DNA of 64,000 bases from Thiothrix subterranea (lineage in GTDB: Bacteria; Pseudomonadota; Gammaproteobacteria; Thiotrichales; Thiotrichaceae), in assembly GCF_016772315.1 (NCBI RefSeq), contig NZ_CP053482.1, positions 3,839,501 through 3,903,500 on the forward strand, given 5' to 3'. Below, piece after piece: positions 142 to 16,616 of the stretch. Made by a program: the position numbers and the translations under genes. Under the pieces are notes generated by a model, which was not told the DNA's origin, did not search any database, and worked only from the letters and a program-made list of their open reading frames with translations. Numbering within the stretch: position 1 is the first letter of the stretch; the number at the start of each line of letters is the position of its first letter.

Positions 142-3100
142 ATGTCTGACCAACCAGATTCAGTGCAAGCGACACCTGCATCACCGCCAGTGTCAGCCAT
201 TCTTATACCCGTCACGGATACGCCGCTGAGTCACTCGCAAGCGTTTCCCGCTGCATTAGGCGGAATATCCCGCAGTGGTGACGGTAGCGCCTACGATGAA
301 TTAATCAATCATCGGGTGGTGCACGTCACCAAAGTCTATGATTTATCAGCCAAACATTCACGTTCCACCGATCCCAGCCAAAAAGAGCAACACTTCTTGG
401 GCAACAACCAGCAGGTGTTAGCGCTCGAAGCCGAAGATGGCACGACCCTGTTTTTATCACCCGAACAATTGCGCGAACGCTTATCTACGCTGCCTGCGAG
501 TGGATTTGAGTTGCTGGATCTAAGCAAGCTCCGTGATACGACTGCTGCTTCACGGGGGTTAGGGGATTGGATTTGGTCAAAATTATCGGTCTTGGAATTA
601 GTCCCGGATAGTTTGGTGGCTGCGGCAAAAGACAAAGCACTGGAATACTTGGAAGAACGTTTGGGGGAAGAGCTGCGCGAGAAACTCGGTGATTTAGCGG
701 TTCCACAAGCATCCTGGCTGGGGGCGAAAGCCTTGATGCACGTGGTCGAATCCAAATTGGCGGGTGAGCCGGGTTTATACCAGTGGAAAACGGAGCGTTT
801 GCGCCACAGTGATCGGGTTGATCCCAGTGTTAGCCATTCGCCCTACCAAGGGCTGGTGGAGGCGGCGCAACAGGGCAAGCCGATTTTGGTGTTTATCCAC
901 GGGACGGCTTCGCATACGTTTGGCAGTTTTGGCGATTTGCGTTCTGGGAAAGATGGGGCGTGGGAGCAACTGACGCGGTGTTTCGGTGAGCATGTTTACG
1001 GCTTTGAACACCGCACGTTTTCCCAAAGCCCGATTGAAAACGTGTTGGAATTGGTGGAACTGCTACCCAAAAATACCACCTTGTCGGTAGTGACACATTC
1101 ACGCGGCGGCTTGGTCGGGGATTTATTGTGTTTGGGCAATCTGAAAGACGCTGAAATCAAGCGTTACTATCACAAAGCGCCGCTGGATCGTCAGGGCCGC
1201 CGCCAAACCGAAACCGCCGTTGAGAGCCAATTACGCGAACGCCTTGCTAAAGAAGAACAAGCGCAGTTGTGCCGTTTACGGCAATTGCTGGGTGAAAAGC
1301 AATTCACGATTCAGCGCTATGTGCGGGTCGCTTGCCCAGCGGCGGGTACGTCGATTTTGTCAGAAAACCTCGATGTGTTTTGTTCCAGCCTGTTGTCGCT
1401 GTTCAATATGGCAGCCAGCATGGTGCCGGTGGTCGGCGGGGTTATTGGCAGTAATATTTTGTCGGTGGTGCGGCGTTTGGTGCTGGAAATCGTGCAAAAG
1501 CGCATCGATCCGCATTTGATTCCGGGGCTGGAGGCGATGTTGCCGGATTCACCGCTGGCAGCGTTACTGGCGCAAGCGTCGCGGCGCGATAATATCAAAA
1601 TGGCGGTGATTTCTGGGGATGCGGAAGGCGGTGCTTTGCTCAAACGCATTATTACCTTGTTCGCGGATTGGGTTATTTTTGACAATTTCGATCATGATTT
1701 GGTAGTGGATTCGCAATCCATGCGTGGCGGTTTGGCGCGGCGGGGCATGACGTATGAGTGCTTTGTGCGCGGTGGCGATGTTAGCCATGTGCATTACTTT
1801 ATGCGGGATAGAACCCGTGCGGCGCTGTATCTGTGGTTAACGCACCCACAACCGGAAACCTTGCCGGGCTTTAATTTATTGCCGATGGATAGCGCCTTCC
1901 TCAAAGAAGTGGCTTGGGAAGCACCGCCACTTTCACGGGATGCGGGTGTGGATACGCGCCCAGTCTTGTTCTATTTGCCGGGGCTGATGGGGTCGCATTT
2001 GGAGGTGTATGCCAGCGGTGACAATAAACCCGGTGAAGGCAATCGCATTTGGTTTGATCCGACCGATTTATTTGTCGGGGGGCTGAGCCTGCTTACCCTT
2101 GATGAGAAACACTCGAATGTGCGCCCTGAGGGGATTTTCAGTCGTTATTACGGCGATTTGGCGAATCATTTGACGAGCACGTTTCAGGTAATTCCGTTTG
2201 CTTACGACTGGCGGGATGATTTGCACAAGGCAGCGGCTGATCTTGCCAATAAGATTCGGCAGGAACTGGCTAAACAGCCGCAGCGCCCAATCAGCCTGTT
2301 AGCCCATAGCATGGGCGGGTTGGTGGCACGTTTAATGATTGCGTTGAACCCAGACTTGTGGGACGAGATGGTGAAGCGCCCGGGTTGCCGTTTTGTGATG
2401 TTGGGTACGCCTAATCACGGTTCGCACATGGTGGTTGAGGCATTGCTGGGGAAAGCGGATTCGGTGCGTAATTTGGCGCGTTTTGATTTCCGGCATGATA
2501 TGAATGAGTTGTTGGGAATCATTGGTGGTTTTACAGGGTTGTTGCAGTTGTTACCCCGCCCCGGCTTTCAAGATGTCGGGATGGATAGCGCTAATGCGCC
2601 GCTGGATTATTTTCAGTCCAGCGAATGGCGTGATGCCAAAGGTCGTAATCAAGACCGTTGGTTTGGCGATGCATTATGCGCCGAGCCATCCGATGCGGCA
2701 TTGCAGCTTGCCAGCAAATTTTGGGCAGCGTTGCAAGATCAAACCGATAACGGTATTAAACACGCGCAACAGATTGCGTATGTTTTTGGGGCGGATAAGC
2801 ATACCCCGTGCGGTTTGACCCTGCATGAAGCCGAGCGTTGGCAAATGTTGGGGACGCAACAAGGCGATGGGACGGTGACGTGGGCGTCAGGTAAATTGCC
2901 GGGTTTGGCGAATACGTGGTTTATGCCGGTCGATCATGCGCGTTTGACGTGTGATAAACGCTATTTCAACGCCATTACCGCCTTGCTGTTGACGGGCAAA
3001 ACGGATGCGTTGACGCAGCAATTGCCCAGTACTTCACGCGGGATGCGTAGTGTCTACCCTTACGAGCCGCGTCCGGTATTGCGCCCCAGTAATGAAGAGC

Positions 3101-6100
3101 TGGAAATGGCGTTTTTCCGCACCACACCGCAACGTGAGTTGAATCAAGACCTTGCGCAGGCGTTGCAGGTGAGTGTGTATGCGATGGATTTACGCTTTAC
3201 CCAACACCCGATCATTTGTGGGCATTACCTTGCCGATGGCATTGCGGGTACGGAGGCGCAAATTGATCAACACTTGTTGGATGGCGCTTTAACCCAGCGT
3301 TCGCGTTTGGGCATTTATGCAGGCGATAGCGGCACTAACACGATTGTGCTGAAAGCCCGTAGCCCCGAAGACCGCAAGCGGGGGACGCGCCATGGGGCGA
3401 TTATTGTAGGCTTGGGTGAGTGGAATACGATCACGGCACAAACGATTGCCGAAACGGTGCGGGATGGAGTGTTGGAATATTTGTTGTACAGCGCGGAACA
3501 TGATGTCGCATTGGATAGCAATGCCACCATTAAGCCGCTGATACTCAACAGTTTGCTGGTCGGTTACAACTCCACCGCCCACATTAGTATTGTGTCATCC
3601 ATTGATGCGATTGTGCGCGGGGTGTGTGCCGCGAATCAGCAATTCCGCAATACCAAACTCAAGCCGGGCTTGTGTGTGGGCGAATTGCGTTTTGTGGAAT
3701 TTTTCCTCGATACCGCGATTACGGCGGCTCATGCGGTGCGTGAATTGCCGTTACGGGTAGAAAAGGATCTGGAGCGTTTGGAAGCGCGGGTGATTCCCGC
3801 CAGTGAGTTGAAGTTCTACAAAGAAGCGCCCCGGCAACGTCTGAGTGAACGTTCGGCTGGCGGCTACTGGGCGCGGCTTATGATCACCAATGATGATGAT
3901 ACAGCGGAAACGAACGCCATTGCGAAAAAGCTGAAATACGTGTTTCTCTCCGAACGCGCCCGTGCCGAGGCGATTGAGCACATGCGCCAGCCCGGTTTGA
4001 TTGAGGCATTGATCCGTGAACAAGTGACCAAGCCGTCGTATGATGCCGATGTGTGTCGCACCTTGTTTCAATTAATGATTCCCTTGGATTTCAAAACGGC
4101 AGCGCGGCAAACCGAGCAATTGCTGTTGGTATTGGATGCGTACACCGCCAACTTGCCGTGGGAAATGCTGCAAGCGGATGATGAGCCATTGGCATTGAAA
4201 ATGGCGATGGTGCGGCAATTGGTGGCGTTGCGTTACCGCAAAACAGTGCGTGGCAGCCTGAAAAATACCGCGTGTGTGATCGGGAATCCGGCAACGACGG
4301 GGTTTTTCCGGCATTACCCCGTGGATAATCAACCGCGTAGCCCAACGGGTGATGGTAGCTTGGCTTCTTTGCGCGGGGCAACGGAGGAGGCGCACGCTGT
4401 GGCGCAGGCATTGCGTACCGCTAATTACGCGGTGGAAACGCTTTATCCCGCGTCGTCTAATGCCGCGCCGGAACACACCGCGATTCAAGTATTCAACACG
4501 CTATTCAAGCGCCCGTATCGCATTTTGATGATTGCCGCGCACGGGGTGGTGGGAATCGTCGGGAAAGATGGGGTCGAGCGCAGTGGGGTGGTGCTCTCTG
4601 ATGGGGTGATGATCACGGCGGCTGAAGTGGGGCAAATGGAAGTGGTGCCGGATTTGGTGTTCCTCAATTGCTGCCATTTGGGTGAAATCAGCCAGATGCC
4701 ATACAGCAGTTATAATCGCTTGGCTTACGGGGTTTCGCGCGAATTGATCGAAATGGGGGTGCGGTGCGTGATTGCGGCGGGCTGGGCAGTCGATGATCAG
4801 GCCGCCAAAAGTTTTTCGACGGAATTCTTCCGCCAGTTTGTGGAAAGCAATCAACCGTTTGGTGCTGCGGTGTTTCGCGCCCGCAAACACGTTCACCAGA
4901 ATTACCCGAATTCCAATACGTGGGGCGCGTATCAAGCTTACGGCGATCCTGTTTATGTTTTGGATAATAGTGAAATAGCGCCCAAACACCGCGAAGTCTG
5001 GACGCCGGTTGCCCCGCAGGAATTGCTGATCAAATTGGAAGATTTGCGCATCAGTCATCAGCATTGCACCAATACGAGTCAAAAGTTGTCTTTTGCAGCG
5101 TTGCAAGAGCGCATTAGCTGCCTGTTGAAAGCAGTACCGAGTGAGTGGCTGGATAAGCCTGATGTGCAATACAAGTTGGGGCATGTGTACGCGGAATGGG
5201 GCTGTGATGGTTATGAAGCAGCGTTGGAGGCTTACCGCAAAGCGATTCAGGCCGATAGCCGCAACGGGCAAGTGCCACTCGCTGCTTTTGAGCAATTATC
5301 AAATATCGAAGTGCGTCATGTGGCTAGTTTGTCCCAAAAACTGTGTGCGCAATTGATGACGCTGGATGCCAGCCAGATGCAAGACGCGGTTCGCTGTAAA
5401 GCACTGCGTCAGGATTTGCGTCAATACCCCGACTGGTTAAAGCGCATTGATAAAGCAGTAGAGCGTTTGGAAAATCTGTTCGCCTTGCAGCCGTTGGATG
5501 ACGAGGCGAAAATCCCACCGTCGCAGGCAGAACGTTACAGTTTGATTGGCAGCGCTTGGAAGCGTAAGGCACAAGTGCAGGCTAATATTGATGAAATTTT
5601 ACAGTTTTTACAGTTATTGTCGCCAAAATCTGGTTCGGATAAACACTTATTGGTTGATCTGCTCGAATGTGAGAGTAAGTTACAGAAAAAGCTAACAACA
5701 CTGTCTGATTGGTCGAAGGTTGCGCATTCCTTGGCGTGCAGCAGTAAGGCGTATAAAAAAGGCGAAAACATGACCTTTAATGGCGAGTTTAACGCTTATC
5801 CCTTGCTCAATCGCTTGCAATTGCAGGGGGTATTAGCACCGCAACAAGACGCAGAGGCGCGTGAAAAACACATGGCGTTGGCGCGTCAGGCACAGGCTCA
5901 TGCGCGGCAATGTTTCCAGAATTCGTATGATTTCTTTGATGCGGTCATGGTGGCTGATGCAGAGGTGGCGTTGTACTTATTGCAAGCCGATTATAACGAT
6001 GAGAATGTTGGGCGCTTAGTCGGCGCGTATCAGGAAGCCATGCACAAAGTTTCCAAAACGGCGCGTGAATTGGGGTCGGTGATTGAGCAATTGCATTTTC

Positions 6101-6225
6101 TGGCACGCTTAACGGCAATGCGCGACCGTGAAACTGGCAGCACGGCAGGATCACCGTGCAGCACTATTTTGGATAAAGTGGCAAAAACCTTGCAAAATTA
6201 TCAGAGTGGTGCATCAATTCAATAA
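142..6225 (+). CDS. Giant alpha/beta-hydrolase - CHAT caspase-like - TPR protein
   Basis: This 2027-residue protein has no signal peptide and is probably cytoplasmic. Residues about 245-560 form a first alpha/beta-hydrolase unit with an oxyanion-type FIHGTAS and a THSRGG elbow (Ser320). Residues about 610-960 form a second, LCAT/PGAP1-like lipase unit, with LPGLMGS near its start and the nucleophile elbow AHSMGG (Ser723). Residues about 1030-1200 resemble the module that often precedes CHAT domains (CGHYLADGI, RSRLGIYAGD). A CHAT domain follows, with a plausible His1467 (IAAHG) and Cys1511 (LNCCHLG) protease dyad. The C-terminus, from about 1660, is helical and TPR-like. CHAT proteins are caspase relatives used in conflict and regulated-death systems. 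A lipase plus protease on one chain suggests a membrane-attacking effector under proteolytic control; that role is inference. Start ATG 142 follows a GCGAGGG ribosome site. The last 12 bases overlap convergent yceF. Confidence 0.85.
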   Translation: MSDQPDSVQATPASPPVSAILIPVTDTPLSHSQAFPAALGGISRSGDGSAYDELINHRVVHVTKVYDLSAKHSRSTDPSQKEQHFLGNNQQVLALEAEDGTTLFLSPEQLRERLSTLPASGFELLDLSKLRDTTAASRGLGDWIWSKLSVLELVPDSLVAAAKDKALEYLEERLGEELREKLGDLAVPQASWLGAKALMHVVESKLAGEPGLYQWKTERLRHSDRVDPSVSHSPYQGLVEAAQQGKPILVFIHGTASHTFGSFGDLRSGKDGAWEQLTRCFGEHVYGFEHRTFSQSPIENVLELVELLPKNTTLSVVTHSRGGLVGDLLCLGNLKDAEIKRYYHKAPLDRQGRRQTETAVESQLRERLAKEEQAQLCRLRQLLGEKQFTIQRYVRVACPAAGTSILSENLDVFCSSLLSLFNMAASMVPVVGGVIGSNILSVVRRLVLEIVQKRIDPHLIPGLEAMLPDSPLAALLAQASRRDNIKMAVISGDAEGGALLKRIITLFADWVIFDNFDHDLVVDSQSMRGGLARRGMTYECFVRGGDVSHVHYFMRDRTRAALYLWLTHPQPETLPGFNLLPMDSAFLKEVAWEAPPLSRDAGVDTRPVLFYLPGLMGSHLEVYASGDNKPGEGNRIWFDPTDLFVGGLSLLTLDEKHSNVRPEGIFSRYYGDLANHLTSTFQVIPFAYDWRDDLHKAAADLANKIRQELAKQPQRPISLLAHSMGGLVARLMIALNPDLWDEMVKRPGCRFVMLGTPNHGSHMVVEALLGKADSVRNLARFDFRHDMNELLGIIGGFTGLLQLLPRPGFQDVGMDSANAPLDYFQSSEWRDAKGRNQDRWFGDALCAEPSDAALQLASKFWAALQDQTDNGIKHAQQIAYVFGADKHTPCGLTLHEAERWQMLGTQQGDGTVTWASGKLPGLANTWFMPVDHARLTCDKRYFNAITALLLTGKTDALTQQLPSTSRGMRSVYPYEPRPVLRPSNEELEMAFFRTTPQRELNQDLAQALQVSVYAMDLRFTQHPIICGHYLADGIAGTEAQIDQHLLDGALTQRSRLGIYAGDSGTNTIVLKARSPEDRKRGTRHGAIIVGLGEWNTITAQTIAETVRDGVLEYLLYSAEHDVALDSNATIKPLILNSLLVGYNSTAHISIVSSIDAIVRGVCAANQQFRNTKLKPGLCVGELRFVEFFLDTAITAAHAVRELPLRVEKDLERLEARVIPASELKFYKEAPRQRLSERSAGGYWARLMITNDDDTAETNAIAKKLKYVFLSERARAEAIEHMRQPGLIEALIREQVTKPSYDADVCRTLFQLMIPLDFKTAARQTEQLLLVLDAYTANLPWEMLQADDEPLALKMAMVRQLVALRYRKTVRGSLKNTACVIGNPATTGFFRHYPVDNQPRSPTGDGSLASLRGATEEAHAVAQALRTANYAVETLYPASSNAAPEHTAIQVFNTLFKRPYRILMIAAHGVVGIVGKDGVERSGVVLSDGVMITAAEVGQMEVVPDLVFLNCCHLGEISQMPYSSYNRLAYGVSRELIEMGVRCVIAAGWAVDDQAAKSFSTEFFRQFVESNQPFGAAVFRARKHVHQNYPNSNTWGAYQAYGDPVYVLDNSEIAPKHREVWTPVAPQELLIKLEDLRISHQHCTNTSQKLSFAALQERISCLLKAVPSEWLDKPDVQYKLGHVYAEWGCDGYEAALEAYRKAIQADSRNGQVPLAAFEQLSNIEVRHVASLSQKLCAQLMTLDASQMQDAVRCKALRQDLRQYPDWLKRIDKAVERLENLFALQPLDDEAKIPPSQAERYSLIGSAWKRKAQVQANIDEILQFLQLLSPKSGSDKHLLVDLLECESKLQKKLTTLSDWSKVAHSLACSSKAYKKGENMTFNGEFNAYPLLNRLQLQGVLAPQQDAEAREKHMALARQAQAHARQCFQNSYDFFDAVMVADAEVALYLLQADYNDENVGRLVGAYQEAMHKVSKTARELGSVIEQLHFLARLTAMRDRETGSTAGSPCSTILDKVAKTLQNYQSGASIQ

Positions 6226-11537: not shown

Positions 11538-11555
11538 ATAGCTTACTTATTAATG

Positions 11556-11601
11556 TAATGTCGGATACTGTAGTCACAGCCCGACATTAAGTGTCTATAA
11601 T
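11556..11601 (+). promoter_or_regulatory. Long hairpin and promoter before the ATPase/Toprim/DUF262 island
   Basis: TAATGTCGG (11556-11564) pairs perfectly with CCGACATTA (11581-11589), and CTGT/ACAG can pair inside the loop. No T run follows on the plus strand, so it is a poor terminator and may instead be an operator. A TATAAT -10 box lies at 11596-11601, with a weak -35 candidate (GTCACA, 11573-11578) 17 bases upstream inside the second hairpin arm. A dimeric regulator bound to the palindrome would block this promoter; that is inference. Confidence 0.5.
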
Positions 11602-11644
11602 AAGCCGATGATGTTTCCGTGATGTGTTCAGAAGGAGTTATGCT

Positions 11645-12889
11645 ATGCCTCTTTTTAGTGTAGAAGTTGAAGGTTATCGAGCCTTCCGTGACAAGGCTAA
11701 AATTGATATACATCCGTTAACACTTCTTTATGGTGAGAACCAAGCAGGCAAAAGCACCTTGCTGCGCTTATTGGTTTTGTTAGCTGACTCACTTTATTCT
11801 GGTCGTGGTCTTTTAAATTTGCATAGCTCGGTTATTCCGAAAAACGTAGTCTTTAGAGACTTAGGTTGGTTAGGGGCGGGCAATGAGTCAAGTAAACCCA
11901 GTTTTAGCTTGAGTGGGCATAATGGTGCATCATTGACACTCAAGTTTGGCGATGAAGGCGGAGTTCTTGTTGATCGTATTACTTGCAAAAAAGAGCATAA
12001 TTTATTTGATGCATGGTTAGCAGGGCAGGTTCATCGAACTAATGAACATTTCCAAGGTTTGTATGAAGGTGAATATGGAGATCAAGAGTGGAGTGGCACG
12101 CTAAAATTTGAAAATTTAATACCTAAGGGACTTCCTGACGGTATCAATCAGATTGTTGCGTCTATTCAAGATGATTTCAGCAGGTTGGAATACATACAAT
12201 GGTTGGGTATTAATCGAATTATTGATGGAAATGGTGATGGTAGAGGGGCAGCTCGCTGTTGTCTGTCTGATGGTTCTGATTTAATTTCTCTTATTAAGGG
12301 CGATTTAGAAAAGCCAATTTTAGAGTCAGTTTCTACTTGGTTGAGACAGCAAGGTTTAGGGGAAAGCATTGTTATTCAGGAGTCTATTAATAATCCGCCT
12401 ATATTTGCCATTAAATCGAGACGAGGAGTAAAAGAGTTGCCTGCTTCTCTTGCTGGTGAAGGTGTTCGCTCTCTATTGCCCATTTTATTATGTATGGCAT
12501 GGGCAGAGATGAAGCAAGAAAGAACGCCTTCATTTCTTGCTATTGAAGAACCTGAATCGCATTTGCATCCGACTCTTCAAGTGAAATTCTTTGATCGTTT
12601 GGTTGAAACAATCAAATGTGGCATTCCTGTCGTTTTAGAGACGCATTCCGTTTATTTGCTGAGAGCTATGCAACTTGCTATTTTAGAAGGTAAATTGTCA
12701 ACTGATGATGTTGGACTTTATTGGGTTGGTCAAAAAGATGAGAACTCAGCTTCAGCTTCATTTGTCGAAAAAATAACGATTGAAAACGATGCAAGGCTAA
12801 GCGGTTGGCCACTAGGAACATTTGAAACAGAGCAAGAGCTTTCTTACGAAATCATGGACTTGCGCTGGAAAAAAGGTACAGACTCATGA
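11645..12889 (+). CDS. AAA/ABC-type ATPase of a putative defence operon
   Basis: The 414-residue protein has Walker A YGENQAGKST (about residues 29-38) right after an N-terminal strand (FSVEVEGYRAFRDKAKI) typical of the RecF/SMC/OLD-like AAA_21 and DUF3696 families. Walker B is LAIEEPESHLHP (Glu301, Glu302), followed by the switch ETHSVYLLRAM. ATPases of this class in prokaryotic immunity sense phage products and license a partner nuclease. The ATG at 11645 is preceded by AAGGAG (11632-11637); an in-frame GTG at 11624 lacks a ribosome site. The stop overlaps the next start (ATGA), so the two proteins are probably made in a fixed ratio. Base composition is clearly AT-richer than the flanking genes. 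Confidence 0.85.
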   Translation: MPLFSVEVEGYRAFRDKAKIDIHPLTLLYGENQAGKSTLLRLLVLLADSLYSGRGLLNLHSSVIPKNVVFRDLGWLGAGNESSKPSFSLSGHNGASLTLKFGDEGGVLVDRITCKKEHNLFDAWLAGQVHRTNEHFQGLYEGEYGDQEWSGTLKFENLIPKGLPDGINQIVASIQDDFSRLEYIQWLGINRIIDGNGDGRGAARCCLSDGSDLISLIKGDLEKPILESVSTWLRQQGLGESIVIQESINNPPIFAIKSRRGVKELPASLAGEGVRSLLPILLCMAWAEMKQERTPSFLAIEEPESHLHPTLQVKFFDRLVETIKCGIPVVLETHSVYLLRAMQLAILEGKLSTDDVGLYWVGQKDENSASASFVEKITIENDARLSGWPLGTFETEQELSYEIMDLRWKKGTDS

Positions 12890-13857
12890 TGATATGGATG
12901 GATGATGCACTATTTTCAGGGAGTCGTTATATTGATTGCTTGAGTGTATTGCATAATGCGGCTATTCGTGGTCATTCATTAACTATTTCAAATGATCCTT
13001 CCGCAAGACGAGGTTCACCTAACTTTGATGAATGGAAGCGCTCTTTATCGGAAAAAATTAAACATGAAGTCGATAATATACTGGATAAACTAAAAGTAAT
13101 TCCATCAAATATAGCTGATCGCGGATTTTCTAAGCGTTTGCTTATTACAAATCGGGAATTTTCTATTAGTAACGTTTGTTTTGTCCGTCTTGATGAAGCG
13201 GTTCGTGCCGTTTCATTACCACTACACATACTGGTAGAAAATCAGATTAATGATGCTGCATTTTTGCGCCATGTGATGCCACCGGATTGTAGAGAAGAAT
13301 TAGAAAAATTGGAGAGACGGGGGCAAATACGTTATATTCAAGGTGGGGGACTTACAGAGATTCTAAAACTTATTAAGTTTCACATTAAGGATGATAACTC
13401 GCGTTTAGTATTTGGTTTGCCTGCTGATGTATGGAAATTACTTCATTTTATTATTTATGATCATGATGGAAAGACAAGTGATTCTCCAAGTTATGATTCT
13501 AAGAAAACATATTTAATATGTGAAGATAATGACATGCTTCATAGAAGTCATCGGTTGATGCGTAAGTCACAGGAGAATTATATTCCTGTCGATGCTTTGA
13601 AAGAAATTGTCAATTTTAAGAAAAAAATTAATAATTCTCAAAAAGAAGAAACACAGAGAAATATAGGATCGTATGAAAAAAGTGGTGATAAGCGATTCTT
13701 TGAAGATGTTGTGAAATTATCATCTAATGAAAAACTGTTTAAGAGCGTTTTCGGAGAAGATGCTTATGAAGAAATTTGGAAAGATGAGTGGTTTGAAAAA
13801 GATGGTTCTTGGCCTGAAATGAGAAAATTGGCTGAATCAATTGTATCATCTATGTAA
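12886..13857 (+). CDS. Toprim-like protein of unknown family, ATPase partner
   Basis: I do not recognise a named family. The 323-residue protein contains LHILVENQINDAAFL (Glu118, Asp123) and, 64 residues on, FIIYDHDG (Asp182, Asp184). A lone Glu after a hydrophobic strand followed by a DxD after a second strand is the Toprim nuclease pattern seen in OLD, Gabija GajA and PARIS AriB. No signal peptide or membrane segment is visible. It overlaps the ATPase by four bases and is very AT-rich (13 G/C of 60 at 13621-13680), with a Lys/Glu-rich C-terminal third. A split ATPase-Toprim pair would function like a two-chain OLD nuclease. The Toprim call rests only on these motifs and spacing. Confidence 0.6.
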   Translation: MMIWMDDALFSGSRYIDCLSVLHNAAIRGHSLTISNDPSARRGSPNFDEWKRSLSEKIKHEVDNILDKLKVIPSNIADRGFSKRLLITNREFSISNVCFVRLDEAVRAVSLPLHILVENQINDAAFLRHVMPPDCREELEKLERRGQIRYIQGGGLTEILKLIKFHIKDDNSRLVFGLPADVWKLLHFIIYDHDGKTSDSPSYDSKKTYLICEDNDMLHRSHRLMRKSQENYIPVDALKEIVNFKKKINNSQKEETQRNIGSYEKSGDKRFFEDVVKLSSNEKLFKSVFGEDAYEEIWKDEWFEKDGSWPEMRKLAESIVSSM

Positions 13858-13877
13858 CTAATTTTTAGGGAATCTTT

Positions 13878-15476
13878 ATGGCTTTTTATGAAAAACAACC
13901 TTTTATCCAGCCACTCTATCAATTAGTGAGCGAGGTGATGCGAGGCGATGTTCGAGTACCACGTTTTCAACGTGCTGGAACTCAAGATACGTGGAGTCCA
14001 GATCAACGTGGTGATCTACTGGATAGCTTGTATCGAGGTTATCCGGTAGGAACAATTTTGTTGTGGTCTACAAATGATACTATTACAACAATTGATGAAG
14101 TTGGTGGTTATAAAATTCCTCGCAGAGAGGATGGCACAACATTGCGCTTGTTATTAGATGGGCATCAACGCTTGTCAACGTTAGTGCAAATCCTTGGTGC
14201 TGGATTGGAAGCCGATATTGAACGCTCTGGTAAGAAAGATGAAGTAGATAATAATGAAAGATGGTTTTTTGATTTAAACGGTAATGATCAGCAAAGTCGT
14301 GAGCGTTTTATTCTATTAAAGCCAAACGTGAACCCCGATGATGCGCAATTACCGATAGATATATTGTTAAACAGATTTAAGCTAAACAAATGGATTCGGG
14401 ATCATCGTGATTTAACAGATGAACAAATCAAGGATGTGGATAGTTTGCGTGATAGATTGCGTGAATATCAGATACCTGTGGCTGTGTTGGTTGCTGATTC
14501 CTTAGATGAAGCTACGGTGAGTTTTAAACGAATAAACTCTAGTGGTACTCCGATGGATGATTTTAATATGGTTGCTGCGCTGGCATTCCAAAATAATTTT
14601 GATTTAAGAGATGTTTTTGAATCTGCTAAAATAAAACTATTAGCGGATTTTGGTAAGTGGCAAGACACACCTGATTTAGACCTTCTTAGAATATGTGCTG
14701 GTATTTTAGATGATAAACCAGCGAACATCAAGGTTGAAAATTTAGCTAAGAAATTAGATCAAAAATTGATTGACAAGGCTATTGGTGGAGCAGCTAAAGC
14801 AAGTCAATTACTAACATTATGCGGTGTGCATGGGCCGGAAGCCTTGCCTTATTCTTGGCAATTAATAACGTTAGCTATTGTGTTAGAAAAAGAGGGCATT
14901 AATACAGAAAGCGAAAACACTAAAAAGGCCGTAGAAAAATGGTTTTGGTTAACAACGTATGGTGAGGTGTTTGCAGGTGTAAATTCAGCTATTTACAAAA
15001 GAAGTAGTGAAGCACTTAAAGAGATGTTGTCAGGTAATGGCTATGAAAAGATGGACAGAGATATTACGAAAAAAGTGCGTCCTGTCCAAAAATTTGATTT
15101 CCGAGCCGTGCGTTCTAAAGCCTGTGCATTATTAATGGCACGTCAATATGATGACGGTCATCTTGATGGCGAAGCTCATAAGGCTTTTGCGACAGGACGA
15201 ACGGCTATGCAACCATTATCAAAAGATGGCAAACGTTCTAATTGGTGGGATTTAGCTATTGTACCAACGGAATTGGTTAAAGTACGTGATGTATTGCGTC
15301 GAAAAGAACAAGGTAGTGCCAATGCAGAAGATAATGATATTTTATACAGACTTGGTATGGTGAATACCTCTGATGCCAATATCACTATAAATGATATGCT
15401 TCTGGCTCGGAAAGCATTATTTTTAGGTCTTGAGAAGACGTTTGTGGAAGAATTAGGGTTAGATTGGGTAGAGTGA
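13878..15476 (+). CDS. DUF262 (GmrS-like/ParB-like fold) protein
   Basis: The 532-residue protein begins with a DUF262 domain: RVPRFQRAG near the start, LLDSLYRGYPVGTILLW, then the signature LLLDGHQRLSTL (canonical DGQQR with His for Gln), and later FKRINSSGTPMDD. DUF262 is the ParB/Srx-fold N-terminal half of GmrSD type IV restriction enzymes and of other anti-phage proteins such as BrxU, and hydrolyses NTP. The HNH (DUF1524) nuclease half expected in GmrD is not visible in the C-terminus, so nuclease activity may come from the Toprim-like neighbour. It lies 20 bases after the preceding gene and ends nine bases before hisC. Confidence 0.85.
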   Translation: MAFYEKQPFIQPLYQLVSEVMRGDVRVPRFQRAGTQDTWSPDQRGDLLDSLYRGYPVGTILLWSTNDTITTIDEVGGYKIPRREDGTTLRLLLDGHQRLSTLVQILGAGLEADIERSGKKDEVDNNERWFFDLNGNDQQSRERFILLKPNVNPDDAQLPIDILLNRFKLNKWIRDHRDLTDEQIKDVDSLRDRLREYQIPVAVLVADSLDEATVSFKRINSSGTPMDDFNMVAALAFQNNFDLRDVFESAKIKLLADFGKWQDTPDLDLLRICAGILDDKPANIKVENLAKKLDQKLIDKAIGGAAKASQLLTLCGVHGPEALPYSWQLITLAIVLEKEGINTESENTKKAVEKWFWLTTYGEVFAGVNSAIYKRSSEALKEMLSGNGYEKMDRDITKKVRPVQKFDFRAVRSKACALLMARQYDDGHLDGEAHKAFATGRTAMQPLSKDGKRSNWWDLAIVPTELVKVRDVLRRKEQGSANAEDNDILYRLGMVNTSDANITINDMLLARKALFLGLEKTFVEELGLDWVE

Positions 15477-15485
15477 GTAAAACGA

Positions 15486-16616
15486 ATGCAAACGACTGTT
15501 GATTTCAAAACACTGGCGGTAACGGGCGTGCAAGCCTTGCATCCTTACCAACCGGGCAAACCCATCGAAGAGCTGGAGCGCGAACTGGGGATTACCAATA
15601 TCCTCAAACTGGCTTCCAACGAAAATCCCCTCGGCGCAAGCCCCAAAGCGCAAGCGGCGATGGCGGCGGTACTTAAATCGCTGGAACTCTATCCCGATGG
15701 CAGTGGCTACCAGTTAAAGGCGGCGACTGCGGACAAGTTTGGTCTGCAAAGCTCACAAATCACTTTAGGTAACGGCTCTAACGACGTGCTGGACATCATT
15801 GCCCGTGTGTTTTTAGATAATAGCCGTGCCGCCGTCTTCTCAGAATACGCCTTTGCGGTTTACCCGATTGTAATTCAAGCCGTGGGCGCAGAATTGCAAC
15901 CTGCCAAAGCGAATCCGCCCAGCCATGACACCATGCCTTACGGGCATAATCTGGCAAACCTTGCCGCGAAAATCACCGACAAAACCCGATTAGTGTTCAT
16001 TGCGAACCCAAATAATCCGACAGGGACGTGGTTGGGTAAGGAGGAGCTGCACCGTTTTCTAAGCCGCGTGCCGAATGATGTCATCGTCGTCATCGACGAA
16101 GCCTATACCGAATACGTGACCGACCCGACCTTCCCGAATGCGTTGGCGTGGCTCGCGGAATTCCCGAATCTGATTGTGACGCGCACGTTTTCCAAGATTT
16201 ACGGTTTGGCGGGGGTGCGGGTCGGTTATGCCGCCTCTAGCTCTGCGATTGCGGATATGCTGAATCGGGTGCGTCAGCCGTTTAACGTGAATTCACTGGC
16301 TTTGGCGGCGGCGCAAGCGGCGTTGGGGGATGATGATTTCCTTGAACGTAGTGTGGCGACGAATGCGGCAGGTTTGCAGCAATGGTTTGCGGCGTGTGCT
16401 GAGAATGGTTGGGAATACATGCCGACAGCGGGCAATTTTATCACCATTAATATGCAGCGTCCGGCGGCACCGTTATATGATGCGTTGTTGCGCGAAGGCG
16501 TGATTGTGCGCCCGATTGGTGGGTATGGTTTGCCGCAACATTTGCGGATTACGGTTGGTACGGCGGCGCAGAATACGCGCTGTATCAAGGCGTTGCAGAA
16601 GGTTCTTACCGCGTGA
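15486..16616 (+). CDS. hisC: Histidinol-phosphate aminotransferase (HisC2 type)
   Basis: This PLP-dependent fold-type I aminotransferase converts imidazole-acetol phosphate to histidinol phosphate. Copies next to tyrA and aroA usually serve aromatic amino-acid transamination as well. The 376 residues contain LASNENPLG, NPNNPTGTW, VVIDEAYTEY and the PLP-lysine region TRTFSKIYGLAGVRVGY. It overlaps tyrA by four bases. The expected upstream neighbours (serC, pheA) are missing: the AT-rich island ends nine bases before its ATG. Composition switches abruptly to 32 G/C of 60 at 15541-15600. Confidence 0.95.
   Translation: MQTTVDFKTLAVTGVQALHPYQPGKPIEELERELGITNILKLASNENPLGASPKAQAAMAAVLKSLELYPDGSGYQLKAATADKFGLQSSQITLGNGSNDVLDIIARVFLDNSRAAVFSEYAFAVYPIVIQAVGAELQPAKANPPSHDTMPYGHNLANLAAKITDKTRLVFIANPNNPTGTWLGKEELHRFLSRVPNDVIVVIDEAYTEYVTDPTFPNALAWLAEFPNLIVTRTFSKIYGLAGVRVGYAASSSAIADMLNRVRQPFNVNSLALAAAQAALGDDDFLERSVATNAAGLQQWFAACAENGWEYMPTAGNFITINMQRPAAPLYDALLREGVIVRPIGGYGLPQHLRITVGTAAQNTRCIKALQKVLTA

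What the first reader, a model, noticed from the sequence alone, without database searches (positions are those of the whole stretch)
11556..15476. Candidate undescribed defence operon: AAA ATPase + Toprim-like + DUF262
Three tightly packed, AT-rich genes (four-base overlap, then a 20-base gap) sit between core genes rhlE and hisC. The ATPase resembles OLD/DUF3696 proteins, the second protein shows a Toprim-type Glu and DxD, and the third has the GmrS-like DUF262 signature without a visible HNH half. Known systems fuse ATPase and Toprim (Gabija, OLD), pair an ATPase with DUF4435 (PARIS), or use DUF262-DUF1524 (GmrSD). This exact three-part set matches none that I know.
Basis: partly seen in the sequence, partly recalled or inferred. 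Interest (0 to 1): 0.78.

Follow-up and report, generated by a model that had tools for sequence, protein, structure and literature searches.

The report
ATPase–Toprim–DUF262 defence operon (PDC-M55 type)
A foreign-looking three-gene cassette, dropped between two housekeeping genes, encodes a likely anti-phage system that joins a two-piece OLD-type nuclease to a DNA-reading protein; its kind is already listed, untested, in a defence database.

Summary
Three same-strand genes (A 11645-12889, B 12886-13857, C 13878-15476; 4-base overlap, 20-base gap) form an AT-rich insert between rhlE and hisC. In 5 of 15 sister genomes rhlE and hisC lie 86 bp apart; here that spacer is replaced up to hisC's ATG.

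A is an OLD-family ABC ATPase. B, unrecognised by Pfam, models as an OLD-type Toprim in its C-terminal two thirds: the top 17 structural rows are OLD, PARIS, Gabija or retron Eco2, with E118, D192 and D194 at the acidic positions. C is a GmrS-type DUF262 protein without a recognisable HNH half.

The set is already listed: PADLOC-DB holds it as candidate PDC-M55, a class that papers I read call unpublished and unvalidated. The closest tested relative, Menshen, shares related ATPase and DUF262 subunits but has a different third protein and gene order. All 15 operons read keep the order A-B-C.

Most likely it works like PARIS with a DUF262 reader added; trigger and nuclease target are untested.

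The parts
11539..15485 (.). foreign insert (about 3.95 kb) that replaces the 86-bp rhlE-hisC spacer seen in five sister genomes
   Evidence: junctions read by eye against five empty sites; identity ends one base after the rhlE stop (11537) and resumes at the hisC ATG (15486); GC 0.38
11556..11589 (.). inverted repeat AATGTCGG..CCGACATT with inner CTGT/ACAG, overlapping the promoter-like site; possible operator or hairpin
   Evidence: single-strand DNA fold z -3.4; the arms with this spacing occur once in the genome
11573..11601 (+). promoter-like site GTCACA-17-TATAAT upstream of A
   Evidence: 10 of 12 consensus matches, but the region holds about as many such sites as shuffles (14 found, 11.8 expected)
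11645..12889 (+). gene A: OLD-family ABC ATPase, 414 aa from the ATG (mechanical GTG start 11624)
   Evidence: AAA_15 5.6e-25; NsnB 1.7e-36, PDC-M55A 2.5e-34; Walker A GxNxxGKS, Walker B Glu (E308, GTG numbering) and THS motif kept in 13 of 13
12886..13857 (+). gene B: OLD-type Toprim nuclease subunit, 323 aa; residues 108-323 Toprim, 1-107 without an assigned fold
   Evidence: PDC-M55B 4.4e-7; model pLDDT 81; Z 10.3 to OLD Toprim, 8.5 to the PARIS complex chain; invariant E118, D123, D192, E230 in 13 rows
13878..15476 (+). gene C: DUF262 (GmrS-type) protein, 532 aa, with helical C-terminal part and no recognisable HNH/DUF1524
   Evidence: GmrSD_N 9e-24; PDC-M55C 1.3e-61; FQR, DGHQR, FxxxN motifs; BrxU Z 14.8
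15486..16616 (+). hisC, flanking housekeeping gene, now directly downstream of C without its usual leader

Best explanation
A horizontally acquired three-subunit anti-phage system of the catalogued candidate type PDC-M55. A and B together are a split OLD module, arranged like PARIS AriA-AriB. [quoted passage not shown] C is a GmrS-type DUF262 protein (ParB-like NTPase fold) that probably senses the invader, most likely by reading modified or otherwise abnormal DNA with its NTPase as a switch; having no recognisable nuclease half of its own, it hands the signal to A-B instead of cutting. B, once freed or activated, cuts nucleic acid (phage or host DNA, or host tRNA as AriB does) and stops the infection, probably by abortive infection. 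Supported here: the conserved three-gene operon, the families, the predicted Toprim fold with its acidic residues, the missing HNH signature in C, and insertion into a site that is empty in five sister species. Inferred: complex formation, who senses, what is cut, and defence itself.
For: Families. B Toprim: the top 17 structural rows (one row per entry, 50 shown, 280 chains with Z of 2 or more) are all OLD, PARIS, Gabija or retron Eco2 proteins, Z 10.3-5.2 within residues 105-323; the next row is Z 4.8 and unrelated. Profile comparison of B with six OLD Toprim domains fetched by Pfam PF20469 (six of nine such loci, see Tried and rejected): 75.6% probability, E 2.4e-5 for one comparison, with the motif Glu and DxD in register; NsnC, C and reversed-B controls gave 0.1%. 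Operon: A-B-C on one strand in 15 of 15 operons read, window included; gaps or overlaps within 20 bases except L027 (52-base B-C overlap) and L085 (110-base A-B overlap), both by mechanical starts. A groups with Menshen NsnB apart from OLD ATPases (93/92), NsnB being one clade (100/100). C folds like BrxU and SspE. Defence setting: type I restriction genes beside L022, two mad3-like proteins beside L020, a cytosine-C5 methylase overlapping C by 4 bases in L023, carriage on a mobilizable plasmid. In PARIS, AriA senses and AriB is a released Toprim tRNase (PMC11455837 whole text; PMC12409363 passages).
Against: I found no phage test of this set. B scores on no Toprim family model in Pfam (window B and four relatives), PF20469 does not ring anywhere in the window's genome (G000 row), and B finds no solved Toprim by sequence; Foldseek E-values are weak (best 2.2e-2, none at 0.001 or below). 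In one of 13 B proteins (L021) the DxD reads DxE. The insert sits between housekeeping genes, and 6 of the 10 proteins scanned (five of the nine that neighbour A-B-C operons) had no PADLOC match at 1e-8. C-type DUF262 proteins also occur without A or B (4 of 6 plasmid records opened, of 36 matched). No evidence was gathered on trigger or substrate.
Confidence: 0.6

Rival explanations
1. It is a subtype of Menshen in which the third subunit (NsnC) has been replaced by a Toprim protein, and it works as Menshen does.
For: A's best PADLOC hit is NsnB; A and NsnB group together; C and NsnA DUF262 profiles match at 98.5% over 201 columns; [quoted passage not shown]
Against: B and NsnC do not match (hhalign 0.1%), and NsnC did not match OLD Toprim domains (0.1%). 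Gene order differs: ATPase-Toprim-DUF262 against DUF262-ATPase-NsnC in 10 of 11 Menshen loci read; the eleventh (L051) meets its contig end before the DUF262 gene. No mixed locus among these 11 and the 15 A-B-C operons. Four genomes (G244, G252, G292, G371) hold both a PDC-M55B and an NsnC match on different contigs.
Confidence: 0.2
2. A modification-dependent (type IV-like) restriction system: C reads modified phage DNA and A-B cut that DNA directly, without killing the cell.
For: C carries the three GmrSD NTPase motifs and a BrxU-like fold; GrwAB of Vibrio cholerae is a two-protein DUF262 system of this kind (PMC12137116 passages); one locus carries a coupled C5 methylase.
Against: C lacks a recognisable HNH half (the GrwA partner in GrwAB has one). 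The split ATPase-Toprim layout resembles PARIS, whose effector attacks tRNA. A methylase overlapping C was noted in one locus only, and not every neighbour was scanned.
Confidence: 0.25
3. A stand-alone toxin-antitoxin or plasmid-stability module, not an anti-phage system.
For: PARIS itself is described as a toxin-antitoxin pair (PMC11455837); two copies were read on plasmid records.
Against: The window copy is chromosomal by context; three large subunits with a DNA-reading type protein are unusual for plain addiction modules (general knowledge); relatives Menshen and PARIS are defence systems.
Confidence: 0.1
4. An ordinary DNA-repair or regulatory operon of the host.
For: ABC ATPases and Toprim folds also occur in repair proteins (general knowledge).
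Against: Foreign base composition, absent from the rhlE-hisC site of five sister species, B found in 1 of 193 relatives, the window's own genome, patchy elsewhere.
Confidence: 0.05

Closest known systems
PDC-M55 (PADLOC-DB 2.0.0 phage defence candidate)
   Same: All three proteins match its A, B and C models; A-B-C order and spacing as in the loci its B model finds.
   Different: Divergent member: the window B matches only the middle of PDC-M55B (profile 78-217 of 315, 4.4e-7) and is 19-25% identical to 11 of the other 12 B proteins, 44% to Candidatus Electronema. PDC-M55 has no description that I found, and its models carry no function label in the output.
Menshen (NsnABC)
   Same: Related ATPase (NsnB) and DUF262 subunits (NsnA).
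   Different: Different third protein (NsnC, no match to B or to OLD Toprim) and different gene order. C is 532 aa with a long helical part; the NsnA model has 385 positions.
PARIS (AriA-AriB)
   Same: ABC ATPase and Toprim nuclease on separate neighbouring genes; a PARIS chain is the best structural match to B after the OLD Toprims (Z 8.5).
   Different: PARIS as described has two components, no DUF262 subunit; B has about 100 residues ahead of the Toprim Glu (E118 against E26 in AriB); A scores lower with AriA (89.0 bits) than with NsnB (124.7 bits).
OLD / Gabija GajA
   Same: Same ATPase and Toprim families; a fused protein (L052) carries B's IENYIP motif and its ATPase sits next to the A+NsnB group in the tree.
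   Different: There both domains are one chain. Gabija adds a UvrD-like helicase (PMC10568477 passages); the window neighbours are rhlE (DEAD-box) and hisC, and I did not search the other loci for GajB.
GmrSD / BrxU / SspE / GrwA
   Same: DUF262 fold and FQR, DGxQR, FxxxN motifs.
   Different: C has no recognisable DUF1524/HNH nuclease half.

Membership tests
PDC-M55 (PADLOC-DB) | matches to models A, B and C in one locus | tested here: met
   2.5e-34, 4.4e-7, 1.3e-61; PADLOC's own score and coverage cut-offs for the system were not available
PDC-M55 (PADLOC-DB) | conserved A-B-C gene order | tested here: met
   15 of 15 operons read, window included
PDC-M55 (PADLOC-DB) | anti-phage activity | not testable with these tools
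   papers read in passages call the PDC systems unpublished or unvalidated; no main text in the library names PDC-M55
Menshen | NsnB-type ATPase | tested here: met
   NsnB 1.7e-36; tree
Menshen | NsnA-type DUF262 protein | tested here: inconclusive
   related, but NsnA scores only 7.7e-7 against 1.3e-61 for PDC-M55C; profiles match over the DUF262 part
Menshen | NsnC subunit | tested here: not met
   no NsnC match in the window's genome (G000 row); B against NsnC 0.1%
PARIS | AriA-type ATPase beside a separate Toprim (DUF4435-type) protein | tested here: inconclusive
   layout and fold fit; AriA model 1.3e-25 but NsnB better; no DUF4435 match for B
OLD-type Toprim nuclease (B) | Toprim fold | tested here: met
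   predicted model: Z 10.3, 175 aligned residues, rmsd 3.5 with 6nk8; the 17 best rows all of the OLD/PARIS/Gabija/Eco2 group. Foldseek alone was weak
OLD-type Toprim nuclease (B) | acidic metal-binding residues (Glu, DxD) | tested here: met
   E118 and D192 in 13 of 13, D194 in 12 of 13; aligned with the OLD VEG Glu and DxD
OLD-type Toprim nuclease (B) | nuclease activity | not testable with these tools
   needs purified protein
GmrSD (C) | DUF262 with QR, DGxQR and FxxxN motifs | tested here: met
   GmrSD_N 9e-24; motif residues in the invariant list of 10 rows; one row left out of that alignment, L024, deviates at two motifs (WRR, LQRGN)
GmrSD (C) | DUF1524 His-Me nuclease half | tested here: not met
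   no Pfam match; helical C-terminal part in the model, partly at low confidence; the only column after residue 380 with four or more His (7 of 12 rows) is Leu in the window

The most novel reading that the evidence does not exclude
A two-piece OLD nuclease (ATPase plus Toprim) placed under the control of a GmrS-type DNA-modification reader that has lost its own nuclease. This would be a hybrid of PARIS-type abortive infection and type IV restriction, in which the DUF262 subunit is a pure sensor and, in at least one locus, is tied to a DNA methylase that may mark self. Exchange of the third part (Toprim here, NsnC in Menshen) around a related ATPase-DUF262 pair would make that pair a general alarm core with swappable effectors.
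Probability: 0.3. Interest if true: 0.7.

Novelty: new member of a known kind. Interest (0 to 1): 0.45.

Why it matters
It gives a catalogued candidate, for which I found no description, a concrete anatomy: its unlabelled middle protein is an OLD-type Toprim, so the set is a split OLD module plus a DUF262 reader. It links PARIS/OLD, Menshen and GmrSD in one operon and makes a testable prediction: the DUF262 subunit senses and the Toprim subunit kills. If right, DUF262 proteins without HNH (also in Menshen) may be sensors for separate effectors.

Tried and rejected
Toprim by sequence models alone: Pfam gives B no Toprim hit, nor four relatives; PF20469 does not match the window's genome; PDB sequence search gave only chance matches; Foldseek E-values were weak, with unrelated LacI-type folds interleaved. 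The Toprim claim rests on the VIA-align ranking plus profile comparison. The stronger hhalign result (96.4%, E 1.4e-9) used a set with two proteins found through B-family profiles, so I repeated it without them (75.6%). The six OLD proteins kept were those of the nine PF20469 loci that passed a script filter for a P-loop and a VEG..D/E motif; L075, L077 and L078 did not pass and were not used, also not in the tree.

B as NsnC: rejected. Whether NsnC holds a Toprim, as a review says of a Menshen component, was not seen in my NsnC set: of three NsnC proteins scanned none had a Pfam match over its cut-off, and the 11-row profile gave 0.1% against OLD Toprim.

BrxU aligned over C's whole length but with rmsd 18.6, and parts of the model after residue 440 are under pLDDT 50, so a degenerate HNH-type fold there is not excluded.

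Searches that found nothing: B in plasmids by tblastn, the locus in E. coli genomes, C in viral contigs. C in phages gave 3 partial matches, not followed.

The Menshen domain paper (Li et al. 2025, doi 10.1093/nar/gkaf357) was seen only as a reference-list entry and is not held. Its title speaks of domain polymorphism of Menshen, so it may describe Toprim variants; this is the main gap in the novelty check. The ABC-ATPase survey of Krishnan et al. 2020 is not held either; a held paper says that Aravind and colleagues had described Toprim-linked OLD-ABC operons and their neighbourhoods (PMC12839542 passages). Millman et al. 2022 (Menshen) was known to me only through reviews.

Rows dropped: L070 (28-base match) from the sister set; L026 (short C) from the C alignments, L019 and L024 also from A2; the L016 fragment and L028 from operon counts; L044 and L051 from the NsnA alignment; L037 and the NsnC matches without a locus were not fetched (11 of 22 matched places were read).
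Full report
WHAT IS THERE. One search confirms three tightly packed + strand genes between rhlE (stop 11537) and hisC (ATG 15486). Gene A most likely starts at the ATG 11645, which has AGGAG seven bases upstream. A and B overlap by 4 bases; B and C are 20 bases apart. The insert has GC 0.380; 523 overlapping windows of the same length elsewhere in the 64 kb have a minimum of 0.483 and a mean of 0.516. Third-position GC is 0.24-0.30 against 0.58-0.64 in rhlE, fabH, hisC and tyrA.

INSERTION. hisC was found in all 16 genomes of the genus searched, the window's own included. In 5 of the 15 others, rhlE lies directly upstream with an 86-bp spacer; in the other ten rhlE was not found within the fetched stretch. 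Reading the five empty sites beside the window, identity ends one base after the rhlE stop and resumes at the hisC ATG. The cassette therefore replaced hisC's leader, and hisC (a single match in this genome) now follows C by 9 bases. No terminator-like site was found between them on this strand. Inference: hisC is probably read from the cassette, so the cassette is likely transcribed in normal growth. B was found in 1 of 193 relatives (the genome itself), and a B-family profile matched 2 of 274 genomes of the class: the genome itself and a fused OLD-type protein.

PROTEIN A. Pfam AAA_15 5.6e-25 and AAA_21 3e-18; DUF3696 below its cut-off. PADLOC: NsnB 1.7e-36, PDC-M55A 2.5e-34, AriA 1.3e-25, GajA 7.2e-17. 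Walker A, Walker B Glu and a THS motif are kept in 13 of 13 family members. In a tree of 34 ATPases (15 A, 11 NsnB, 8 OLD) A and NsnB group apart from OLD (93/92) and NsnB is one clade (100/100); A as one clade is not supported (35/34). OLD rows have long branches, so this is indicative.

PROTEIN B. No Toprim hit in Pfam. An alignment of 13 B proteins has 13 invariant positions including E118, D123, D192, E230, Y232 and P234, with D194 in 12 of 13. The AlphaFold2 model (pLDDT 81, pTM 0.82) was compared with solved structures: 6nk8 OLD Toprim Z 10.3 (175 residues, rmsd 3.5), two other OLD Toprims 9.3 and 9.0, PARIS 8.5 and 7.9, Thermus OLD 7.9, retron Eco2 6.5, Gabija 6.6-5.2; the first 17 rows are all of this group and the next is Z 4.8. 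The tool warns that Z under 8 can be a common arrangement; five chains reach 8. Foldseek's own scores were weak, best 2.2e-2 with an OLD nuclease. Profile-profile comparison with six OLD proteins found by PF20469 (six of nine loci) gave 75.6%, E 2.4e-5, and about 0.1% for three controls. A fused ATPase-Toprim protein found by the B profile (L052) has the same IENYIP motif after its DSD, and its ATPase sits next to A+NsnB in the tree. So A and B look like a split OLD protein. Residues 1-107 of B are less confident in the model and have no assigned fold.

PROTEIN C. GmrSD_N 9e-24. The motif residues Q31 R32, D94 G95 Q97 R98, F216 and N220 are invariant in the ten-row alignment; L024, outside that alignment, deviates at two motifs. 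The model (pLDDT 77, pTM 0.65) matches BrxU (Z 14.8 over 462 residues, but rmsd 18.6), SspE (8.2), DndI (6.8) and ParB-type folds (about 5). The C-terminal 130 residues are mostly helical in the model, partly at low confidence, with no conserved His. So the NTPase/reader half is present and the nuclease half is not recognisable.

CO-OCCURRENCE. The PDC-M55B model matched 11 of 398 genomes of the phylum, own genome included, at 14 places. Twelve of the 14 lie in A-B-C operons (one with a shortened C, L026), one is a fragment beside an A fragment on the contig of an intact copy (L016, in L017), and one is a fused ATPase-Toprim protein (L028). Adding Candidatus Electronema (L002) and two of six plasmid records opened (Paracoccus yeei pYEE5 and Nonomuraea) gives 15 operons, all A-B-C on one strand. 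The other four of the six plasmid records had a C-like DUF262 protein without a detected A or B within 6 kb; 36 plasmid records matched C in all. So intact B was found only with A and C, while C also has other settings.

RELATION TO MENSHEN. NsnC matched 17 of 200 genomes. In 10 of 11 loci read the order is DUF262-ATPase-NsnC; L051 meets its contig end before the DUF262 gene. C and NsnA match over the DUF262 part (98.5%) and A is close to NsnB, but NsnC and B do not match. Four genomes (G244, G252, G292, G371) have both a PDC-M55B and an NsnC match, on different contigs, as expected of two separate systems. It is a sibling of Menshen by two of three parts, not a member by the third.

KNOWN OR NEW. 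The three-part set is catalogued as PDC-M55 in PADLOC-DB 2.0.0. Papers I read in passages call PDC systems unpublished candidates (PMC11811056), not experimentally validated (PMC10855318) and unvalidated, found by guilt-by-embedding (PMC12988326). No main text in the library names PDC-M55. Two papers hold DUF262, TOPRIM and 'defense system' together: PMC10952713, read in passages, does not describe this set in them; PMC3710099 was seen only as a listing. A search for DUF262, ATPase and phage since 2022 listed nine papers, of which I read two in passages (PMC12137116, PMC10952713). A paper on Menshen domain polymorphism could not be read and may change this.

MECHANISM. By analogy with PARIS (PMC11455837 whole text; PMC12409363 passages), A is expected to hold B inactive and release or activate it on a trigger; AriB is a two-metal Toprim tRNase. 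By analogy with GmrSD, BrxU and GrwAB (PMC10952713 and PMC12137116 passages), C is expected to use NTP binding to report modified DNA. The C5 methylase overlapping C in one locus fits a role in reading DNA modification, but it is one of 15 operons. None of these steps was tested.

Noticed in passing
window 142-6225 (+): A 2027-aa protein with alpha/beta-hydrolase-type matches (DUF7379, DUF676, PGAP1) and a CHAT caspase-like domain at 1304-1602; possibly another defence or cell-death effector in the same window.
   Followed up: partly
window 11556-11589: Inverted repeat with inner CTGT/ACAG over the promoter-like site of gene A; the stretch folds better than all but 1 of 200 shuffles and its outer arms at this spacing occur once in the genome. 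May be an operator.
   Followed up: partly
window 15476-15486: The insertion removed the conserved leader of hisC, which now starts 9 bases after C's stop; a core amino-acid gene may depend on the defence cassette for transcription.
   Followed up: partly
L024 484-5730 (-): C is in one open frame with a stretch that reads by eye as TIR and NB-ARC, followed by WD40 repeats (1748 aa; WD40 by Pfam). Its own DUF262 motifs are partly degenerate.
   Followed up: partly
L019 4444-6693 (+): C carries a C-terminal tetratricopeptide-repeat extension that runs to the contig end.
   Followed up: no
L023 3445-4632 (-): A cytosine-C5 DNA methylase overlaps the end of C by 4 bases, as a fourth gene of the operon.
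   Followed up: partly
L020 97-3701 (+): Two neighbouring proteins with mad3-type matches (methylation-associated defence) stand beside an A-B-C operon.
   Followed up: no
L083 4985-7578 (+): On a Klebsiella pneumoniae plasmid a C-like DUF262 protein directly follows a gene with a putAbiC abortive-infection domain, a possible different two-gene system.
   Followed up: no
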